Assembly: GCF_004210375.1 (NCBI RefSeq)
Contig: NC_134833.1
Span: 18,903,396 to 18,967,395 of the forward strand
Length of the DNA: 64,000 nucleotides
Source: Tachypleus tridentatus
Lineage: Eukaryota; Arthropoda; Merostomata; Xiphosura; Limulidae
Direction of reading: 5' to 3'
Position 1 is the first letter of the stretch. The number at the start of each line of letters is the position of its first letter. The notes below the pieces were generated by a model, which saw nothing but the letters and a program-made list of their open reading frames with translations, was not told the DNA's origin and searched no databases. Made by a program: the position numbers and the translations under genes. Positions 41,311 through 44,300 of this stretch are shown piece by piece.

Positions 41311-41393
41311 CTATACCAGGTTGTATTCTTTCAGGTTTAGTTGAAGGATGGTGTCTTTCACTGCTGCAAAAACAAATCGAATATTCTCCGTGT
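41311..41393 (-). CDS. GNAQ: Gq alpha alternative terminal exon, copy 8b (ends EYNLV)
   Basis: The acceptor GGGCAG is followed by ACACGGAGAAT; the product is [18 protein letters not shown], then LNLKEYNLV, stop TAG at 41311-41313. As far as I know the C-terminus is identical to vertebrate GNAQ. It has the same length (83 bp to the stop) and phase as copy 8a, 1.45 kb further along the transcript. Confidence 0.97.
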
Positions 41394-44300
41394 CTGCCCA
41401 GAAAAATAAAAATAAAAAATCCATAAGCATTATCTTGAAATTTAAACAAACTATTCATACAAAACACACAAACGACCTAATGCTTTCTTACAGATTAATT
41501 ATCATTCTCAAGTTCTATACCATTAATTTAGAAGCAAAATATAAGATACTCTCACACACCAATAACTTTTTTGAATCTCTTAGTGTGTGTTAAGGGTATA
41601 TCTTTCTTTTAAACTGTAGTTTATCATTTTCAGCAATTTAACTGTCTACTCTGGACACATATTTTTAGTTATTTTTCTATATGCATGAATATCTCAAACT
41701 TACATCAAATATAAATTTTCCATTACTGTTGACTAACTTTCACTTGTTACAAGTACAAAACAGATTAAAATAAAAGAACCAAAGAACACTTATCCATAAA
41801 TACAACTGGACATTAATTTTTTTTAAATATTTGTTCTACTTAGCTACATGTTTATTATTAACATCACTCAAAACAAATAGTGCGAATAACACCTTGAATT
41901 TTGTCCCGTTATTCTTCTACGAGTATATAAAAGCCATTGTTCATTAGTTTTTTATATGATCTCTTATTTAACATGTTCTTCCTTTTGCCACAAACTTTAT
42001 CTACTGATAATATTATATATACACATACAGGCATGCTGATTTCCTTTCAAACATTTACCGTCTTCCTGTAAACACTGCATCACACAACCGAGTATAATTT
42101 AATGAATGTTTTGTTAGGGATAACTACCCATTTTAACTATAGACATTCATTCATTCTTTTAATAAAATTATTCACTGACTGAAATATAGTTACCTTTAAT
42201 TCTTAATAATAATAATAATTTTGCTTCAAATAATTTGAAACACCACAAGTTTTCTTATGAATAATGTTATGGTTATTTTGATTGACAATTGCTAAATGAA
42301 AACATCAAGATCCTACAATATTCTTAGCCCATAAAACAGATCAAGCTTCGAGTAGTTTAATTATTTGACACTGACTAATCTAATGTTTCATCCTATGAAT
42401 TAGTTAGTACTAGAAAAACATATAATCAACTAACAGTTATGTTTGGCATAACATCATAATAGTAATGAGCTATCTTTCAAAACTTCCAAATGCAACTTTC
42501 TCACGTAAATACATGAAAATTCAATAAATATGCATATGTTTACTTCCAAGAAATTATAAATACATGCATGTTATAAGTAGTATTTGAGAACATTGAAAAT
42601 TATATATGTATAAACTGAAACTAGAAACACAATTCACAAACAAATCAATCAATCATGTGAACAGTTAACCTGTAACAAACCAAATAGTACAACTCTTATA
42701 CAAGATAACGAACTTGTGCAACTACACATGCATCAATTTCTCTACAGTAAAATAACATAAATGTGTTTCAGCGAGTGCAATAGTGAAAAAGATCCTGATA
42801 ACTATTGGATCTAAATCATCTGCAACACTTCTTATTGTCATCACATCAGGCAAGGTTGTATTCCTTCAAGTTGTTCTGCAGTATAGTATCCTTGACAGCA
42901 CAGAAGACCAGTTTAATGTTTTCGGTATCTACATGCACGGTTGTGTTATTATACATGCAAGCAGAAAGACACAAGAAAACAGAATTGTTAGTGACAGAGC
43001 AAGTATGACTTATAAGAATGACACAATAAGTAACATGCTAAGTAGTCACACACACTTTGAACACGTACCAACAAACATGAAAAACACCATAAAAAAAGGA
43101 GAGATAAGAAAGGCAAACTTGAAATATTGTAATTTAAATTAAAGAGATAGTTCATATCATCCACAGAAAATATCTCACTTTTTAAACTTCACACACAAAA
43201 AAAGCTAGTAAAATTATTGAAAGACTTTAAAAAACATAGAGGTTCTAAAGCTGGCAGACTTAGTGTACATAGTGATAGCAAACAAGTAAGCATGCACATG
43301 GGGTCAGATGCTCAAGTCTGCCATTGCCAAACCTCCACATCTACTTATCACAAGCACAGGTAGTTTGTTCCTACCTGTTGCACATGTGAAATGTGAATAG
43401 ATGATTTTTTCACTGTCTGGGTTGAGGTCCACAAACATTTTGAGGATGAACTCCCTAGCGTGAATGGCATCTTTCTTTGGCCCTAGAGAAGCAAAGGGGA
43501 GAGGAAGAAGTGCTTCAGTGAGTATCAGAAGGCACTAAGAGTTCAATGTCTGTGGAGGTTTGGAGGCAGGAGGCAGCCTCTTATAGACCTTTGACACAAC
43601 CATCCACCAATATATACGTTCAGTATGGGTTGTCAAAGGTTGCCCATAACAGCACTAAAGCACCTTCATAACTACACAGCACTCAAAGAAGACAGGAAAA
43701 ATGCAAAGTTAAGGAATATAACTTTGAGAAAAATAGCAAAGGGAATGTCATTTTTGCGCAATCTATTGGCAAGGGCTCCTTATTTTAGATGCACTTGTCT
43801 GCTCGCTAAACTAACCTGTGGCACAAGTGAAGTGAGAGTAAATCATACGATCTGGGTCAGGATTCTGAGCCAGATAAATCTTTAGGATGAACTCACGGGC
43901 TGCAATGTGGTCCTGGTTGGGGCCTATAACAATTAATTCCAAAATTAGTTCTCTGAAACTGATTTTCTTTGTGAGAAAACGTGGAATCACATTTGACTTG
44001 AAAAACAAATAAATGTATCATTTGTCTTTTAGAATGACATAACGAAAAAAGAAAACCTGCTTTGATATTTAAACCTAAATCCAGTATGTATAAACCATTC
44101 AAGTTCCTCTTACAGAAATCTTCTTTCAAAGATTAACAGTGTAATAAATATATCAGGGTATTATCATTTAAAGAATCCTCTTCTGATTTATATCAATGGA
44201 AAACATCATTAAAAACAAGGGTTAATAACTGTATGACAGATGAAGTTTCATACTTTTCCCATGATTATACTTGTGGAATGGTAATAAAACTTGACAATTA

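What the first reader, a model, noticed from the sequence alone, without database searches (positions are those of the whole stretch)
41311..42928. Two alternative last exons give Gq alpha C-termini EYNLV and EYNLA
Both terminal exons are 83 bp to the stop, open and in the same phase. They change the alpha5 helix at five positions, including the final residue, where single substitutions are known to alter receptor choice in G alpha proteins. An Ala-ending Gq is not the usual form.
Basis: partly seen in the sequence, partly recalled or inferred. Interest (0 to 1): 0.8.

Follow-up and report, generated by a model that had tools for sequence, protein, structure and literature searches.

The report
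Horseshoe crab Gq with alternative tails
A horseshoe crab gene for the signalling protein Gq carries spare copies of its last two coding pieces, much like the arrangement insects use to make an eye form of Gq, which suggests the trick may be older than the split between horseshoe crabs and insects.

Summary
The two terminal exons are real: 83 nt each, same phase, AG acceptors, five residue changes, ending EYNLV (H, 41393-41311) and EYNLA (H', 42928-42846), minus strand. Insect Gq-alpha is already known to use alternative exons at these two places, one variant being the eye form (PMC4553527, PMC5765363; passages). H' and G' share diagnostic residues of that form, though the fly letters are recalled. 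So this is very probably the chelicerate counterpart of a known insect system. New here: three other Gq ohnologs lack H'; two of those also lack G and are fixed as G'-H; a retrocopy of the window gene's mRNA carries G'. G' is thus not tied to H', unlike in Lygus Gq1-4. H' shows a codon pattern of long protein constraint. Its transcription, tissue and receptor preference are untested.

The parts
41311..41393 (-). terminal exon H (canonical, ...EYNLV stop), 83 nt
   Evidence: same 27 residues in the C9, C4, C11 and C19 genes
42846..42928 (-). alternative terminal exon H' (...EYNLA stop), 83 nt
   Evidence: only copy found in the genome; codon pattern
42929..42990 (-). H' acceptor region: weak near pyrimidine tract, pyrimidine-rich run further up, CTAAC with its second A at -60, no AG for 78 nt
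   Evidence: a branch point there is inferred
43375..43482 (-). exon G (canonical penultimate exon), 108 nt
   Evidence: also in C11, and a decayed copy on C2
   Evidence: also in the C4, C11, C19 genes, a C7 relic and a retrocopy
46274..46427 (-). exon F ([10 protein letters not shown]...NKKDLLEE...EYD), 154 nt
46936..47065 (-). exon E (DVGGQ, switch II), 130 nt
53876..54004 (-). exon D (single; no D' copy found), 129 nt

Best explanation
The window holds the 3' half of a horseshoe crab Gq-alpha gene whose last two coding exons exist in tandem alternative copies (G'/G, then H'/H). Splicing picks one exon 7 and one exon 8. Skipping the weak proximal H' acceptor gives the EYNLV protein; using it gives an EYNLA protein whose alpha5 end differs at five places and whose mRNA could end in its own 3' UTR. 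G' and H' are most likely orthologous to the alternative exons 7 and 8 of the insect eye isoform of Gq-alpha, so the duplication predates the chelicerate-mandibulate split, and the EYNLA isoform is most likely a photoreceptor (or other specialised neuronal) form. After genome duplications three of the four Gq genes that still look sound lost H', and two of those three also lost G. Shown: exon structure, codon pattern, copy distribution, a retrocopy carrying G'. Inferred: use of H', tissue, receptor preference, age.
For: Exons, frames and splice sites. H' versus H: third positions saturated, pN 0.13. G' present in 4 of 4 Gq genes that look sound, NG86 dN/dS 0 to 0.22 in the 6 pairs among them. 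G and G' both in C9 and C11, so that duplication predates their split. Insect precedent: homologous alternative exons; the Lygus variant like fly Gq1 is head-restricted; V303 in fly exon 7A is specific to the eye isoform (passages). With recalled fly letters, 4 of 5 H' changes and, at columns where the canonical rows agree, 6 of 9 C9 G' changes are the fly eye residue; in a tree of 8 exon-7 rows the split {fly eye exon, G'} versus canonical has support 100/99. Retrocopy made of C9-like exons C, D, E, F and G'. H' acceptor has the fewest near pyrimidines of 14 acceptors compared.
Against: No transcript of H' was seen. H' is missing from 3 of 4 Gq genes that look sound, so it is dispensable in most copies. 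dN/dS on such short exons separates poorly: pairs with the C7 and C2 relics also give low values (0.27-0.46 and 0.10-0.14). The retrocopy's 13 nt of terminal exon fit H (12/13) better than H' (10/13), by eye. The insect third alternative exon (D') is absent. G' goes with H in C4 and C19, so the two alternative exons are not linked as in Lygus Gq1-4. Fly exon letters come from memory; text searches for pieces of them found none. C4 G' shares only 4 of 9 changes. No tree was made for exon 8. AG-free runs as long as that of H' precede two other exons.
Confidence: 0.78

Rival explanations
1. H' and G' arose by exon duplications within the horseshoe crab line, and the likeness to the insect eye exons is convergence or faulty recall of the fly letters.
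For: D' is absent; local exon duplication has happened repeatedly in G-alpha genes of chordates; fly rows are recalled.
Against: Identical changes at 4 of 5 H' sites and 6 of 9 C9 G' sites, 100/99 support for the exon-7 split; V303, reported as specific to the eye isoform, falls where the recalled sequence has Val (counted by hand with a recalled length of 353); H'-H third positions are saturated.
Confidence: 0.13
2. H' is a dying remnant: an old alternative exon no longer spliced, open by luck.
For: Weakest near pyrimidine tract of 14 acceptors; lost in three of the four Gq genes that look sound.
Against: Open to a stop at the same codon as H, AG acceptor, 9 changes in 52 first and second positions against 19 in 26 third positions; a weak proximal acceptor is also what a regulated exon would have.
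Confidence: 0.1
3. H' is used, but outside the visual system (for example in chemosensory or neuroendocrine cells), so it is not an eye form here.
For: G' was in the germ-line mRNA that gave the retrocopy and is fixed in two genes, so that alternative exon is not eye-limited.
Against: The Lygus variant with both alternative exons was amplified from head cDNA only, and the fly eye isoform serves phototransduction (passages).
Confidence: 0.25

Closest known systems
Insect Gq-alpha (dgq) alternative exons: fly eye isoform Gq1 / Gq-RD; Anopheles D/D', G/G', H/H*; Lygus Gq1-Gq5
   Same: Same gene family; the same part of the protein (residue 292 to the end) comes in two versions by alternative exons (passages).
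   Different: No D' here; alternative exon 8 ends EYNLA; alternative exon 7 is not tied to alternative exon 8 (fixed as G'-H in two ohnologs). In Lygus Gq1-4 the part from 292 varies as one block; Lygus Gq5 lacks 291-326.
Vertebrate GNAO exon pairs 7.1-8.1 / 7.2-8.2
   Same: Alternative last two exons changing the receptor-facing end; after the teleost genome duplication one copy kept both pairs and the other lost one, in zebrafish, medaka and stickleback (passages).
   Different: Go not Gq; described as a local duplication in vertebrates; the exons are described as pairs.
Vertebrate GNAQ/GNA11 exon 4 and cephalochordate preGNAQ exon 5 duplications
   Same: Local exon duplication in Gq genes giving alternative isoforms.
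   Different: A different part of the protein.

Membership tests
Gq-alpha | G-alpha domain and closest match to Gq/11 chains | tested here: met
   PF00503 E 8.5e-85. Of 389 matched PDB sequences 60 were listed; the best 27 are named Gq, G11 or Gi-Gq type fusions at 372-387 bits (some names cut), the next is 249 bits
Gq-alpha | Canonical EYNLV tail | tested here: met
   Met by exon H; H' ends EYNLA
Insect-type alternative-exon Gq | Alternative last exon | tested here: met
   H'/H
Insect-type alternative-exon Gq | Alternative penultimate exon | tested here: met
   G'/G
Insect-type alternative-exon Gq | Alternative exon D/D' | tested here: not met
   One D exon in each of the C9, C4, C11 and C19 genes
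Insect-type alternative-exon Gq | Alternative exons orthologous to the fly eye exons | tested here: inconclusive
   Supported with recalled fly letters; no collection of animal sequences at hand
Insect-type alternative-exon Gq | Head or eye restricted expression of the variant | not testable with these tools
   No RNA data

The most novel reading that the evidence does not exclude
The ancestral arthropod Gq gene already encoded a photoreceptor-type end by alternative exons 7 and 8. Horseshoe crabs then took it apart by genome duplication: only one ohnolog keeps the EYNLA tail, while two others are fixed as a hybrid (eye-type exon 7 with canonical tail) not among Lygus Gq1-4. Effector-side and receptor-side properties of a visual Gq could thus be separated by comparing natural genes.
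Probability: 0.5. Interest if true: 0.6.

Novelty: new member of a known kind. Interest (0 to 1): 0.45.

Why it matters
If H' and G' are the insect eye exons, a dedicated visual Gq made by splicing is older than the chelicerate-insect split and should be sought in spiders, scorpions and crustaceans. It also warns that a commercial antibody raised against [10 protein letters not shown] (described in PMC7066151, passages) may miss an isoform ending [10 protein letters not shown] (inference). The ohnologs offer natural combinations of exon 7 and exon 8 for dissecting PLC and opsin coupling.

Tried and rejected
Considered and dropped: an artefact or chance ORF; a second EYNLA exon elsewhere in the genome (none: protein search, DNA search; the tool scores only its best candidates). 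Relics of H' beside the other copies: none at E 0.01 in the stretches fetched; a search at E 5 of the six loci L014-L019 gave only weak matches, the best E 0.13 with a gap just before H in C4, taken as chance; 15 kb of window against 17 loci at 1e-3 gave none. In the C7 relic H was not found either, so the lack of H' there says little. A D' exon: none. The distant branch point as a firm claim was dropped, because AG-free runs of 79 and 81 nt also precede F and D in C11 (one of the 23 rows there, exon C of C11, did not end in AG, so its boundary was off). The retrocopy as proof of G'-H splicing was weakened to 'probably H': only about 13 nt of terminal exon remain, and what follows matches neither 3' end above the best of 30 shuffles. 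Arthropod stretches in public contigs: 136 pattern matches in genome contigs and 46 in viral contigs, none encoding a relative. Printed fly eye tail: no EFNLG in the 24 papers listed and no paper with any of six peptide pieces. Papers on chelicerate or horseshoe crab Gq splicing: seen as capped listings only, 20 of 40, 15 of 1,495, 25 of 1,674, 10 of 80; none of the listed titles and abstract starts describes it, and passages of PMC4898813 and PMC5536051 did not; subscription papers are mostly not held, so this is no proof of novelty. No structure was predicted.

Full report
WHAT IS THERE. The minus strand of the window carries the 3' part of a Gq-alpha gene: exon D 54004-53876, E 47065-46936, F 46427-46274, G' 43923-43816, G 43482-43375, H' 42928-42846, H 41393-41311 (edges read from the printed sequence). 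An upstream exon match lies outside the window at C9:18970365-18970210. A D-E-F-G'-H' join matches Pfam G-alpha at 8.5e-85 and solved Gq/11 chains best.

G' is a second copy of exon G: 108 nt, same phase, GT-AG bounded, 23 of 36 residues identical. The order is F, G', G, H', H. Including both exon 7 copies would add 36 residues in frame.

ORGANISM. Pfam coagulin has 19 matches in the genome and none in the 14 control genomes of that tool. A joined 89-residue stretch is 89/89 identical to the coagulogen of PDB 1aoc (that 1aoc is from Tachypleus tridentatus is recalled). So the genome is a horseshoe crab, probably Tachypleus. Three rounds of genome duplication are reported for horseshoe crabs (PMC7815833, passages).

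OTHER COPIES. H' as query: 13 matches at E up to 10, of which one is H' itself and four are Gq-type EYNLV exons on C9, C4, C11, C19. A DNA query with H' and its flank found no other H'. G' occurs in the C9, C4, C11, C19 genes, in a relic on C7 and in a retrocopy on C4 at 67.6 Mb; G occurs in C9, C11 and a relic on C2. So C9 has G',G,H',H; C11 has G',G,H; C4 and C19 have G',H. The C2 and C7 copies show stop codons in some pieces. The N-terminal exons of C4 and C19 were not fetched, so 'look sound' refers to the exons examined. D is single in each of the four genes. That these copies are ohnologs from genome duplication is inferred from their separate chromosomes; synteny was not tested.

CONSTRAINT. 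Nei-Gojobori counts: H' versus C9 H has pS about 1.1 (saturated) and pN 0.13; differences by codon position are 5, 4, 19 in 26 codons. Among the four H exons the protein is identical while pS is 0.54 to 0.95. G' among the four genes gives dN/dS of 0 to 0.22 in 6 pairs; with the C7 relic three pairs give 0.27, 0.27 and 0.46 and one is saturated. G of C9 against C11 gives 0.22, and against the C2 relic 0.14 (C11 against it 0.10). So on exons this short low dN/dS does not by itself tell a working copy from a relic. G' and G are both in C9 and C11, so that duplication is older than their separation. For H' the synonymous distance to any H (0.91-1.09) is mostly above that among H copies (0.54-0.95), which suggests the same without proof.

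EVIDENCE ON TRANSCRIPTS. L023 is an intronless copy of a Gq mRNA. Pieces align to C9 exon C at 89%, D 89%, E 93%, F 82%, G' 91%, better than to the other paralogs tried for D (C11, C19), E and F (C11, C19, C4) and G' (C11, C19, C4, C7). It contains G' and not G (61% to C9 G). It keeps only about 13 nt of the terminal exon: 12/13 to H, 10/13 to H', counted by eye. A germ-line mRNA of the window gene therefore used G', probably with H.

SPLICING MODEL (inferred). The H' acceptor has 47% pyrimidines and 18% T in positions -20 to -4, the lowest of 14 acceptors compared. A pyrimidine-rich run lies further up (best 12-nt window ends at -44) and a CTAAC has its second A at -60, with no AG for 78 nt. 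This would fit a proximal exon skipped by default and chosen when a factor helps, but AG-free runs of 79 and 81 nt precede two other exons. Possible poly(A) signals follow H' at +485 to +990, before H.

COMPARISON WITH KNOWN SYSTEMS. In Lygus hesperus, Gq1-4 differ in two blocks, after residue 155 and from 292 to the end, said to be consistent with alternative exons described in Anopheles (D/D', G/G', H/H*) and Drosophila; Gq4, like fly Gq1, is head-specific; Gq5 lacks 291-326 (PMC4553527, passages). In flies V303, in exon 7A, is specific to the eye isoform and its change to Asp gives an essentially flat ERG (PMC5765363, passages). My recalled fly eye exon has Val at that position (hand count, recalled length 353), a partial check on recall. 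With the recalled rows, H' shares 4 of its 5 changes with the fly eye exon 8 (K, L, C, N) and has a small last residue (Ala; fly Gly); it matches fly eye exon 8 at 23 of 27 and its own H at 22 of 27. C9 G' shares 6 of 9 changes, C4 G' 4 of 9; the tree of eight exon-7 rows (36 columns; C19 G', identical in protein to C4, left out) separates fly eye plus G' from canonical with 100/99 support, though the fly eye row is long. Vertebrate GNAO shows a similar design, including loss of one exon pair in one copy after genome duplication (PMC5896119, passages and section 45).

VERDICT. Observation confirmed. The system is a known kind in insects; this is its likely chelicerate counterpart, with a different fate after genome duplication. 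Use of H', its tissue and its receptor effect remain to be shown.

Noticed in passing
L023, about 667-1621 (C4:67610675-67611629 of the same genome): Broken intronless retrocopy of the window gene's Gq mRNA, carrying exon G' and about 13 bases of the terminal exon.
   Followed up: yes
L036-L038 (C2:6.11-6.14 Mb) and L039-L041 (C7:15.23-15.26 Mb): Decayed Gq-alpha copies with stop codons in some exon pieces; C2 keeps a G-type exon, C7 a G'-type exon.
   Followed up: partly
window 48664-49378 and 49985-50280: Tandem arrays of a 40-bp unit (18 copies) and a 42-bp unit (7 copies) in the D-E intron.
   Followed up: no
window 47769-48555 and 50603-50746: Intronic stretches with pieces similar to non-exon sequence near the C19 (and C4) and C7 copies, probably dispersed repeats.
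   Followed up: no
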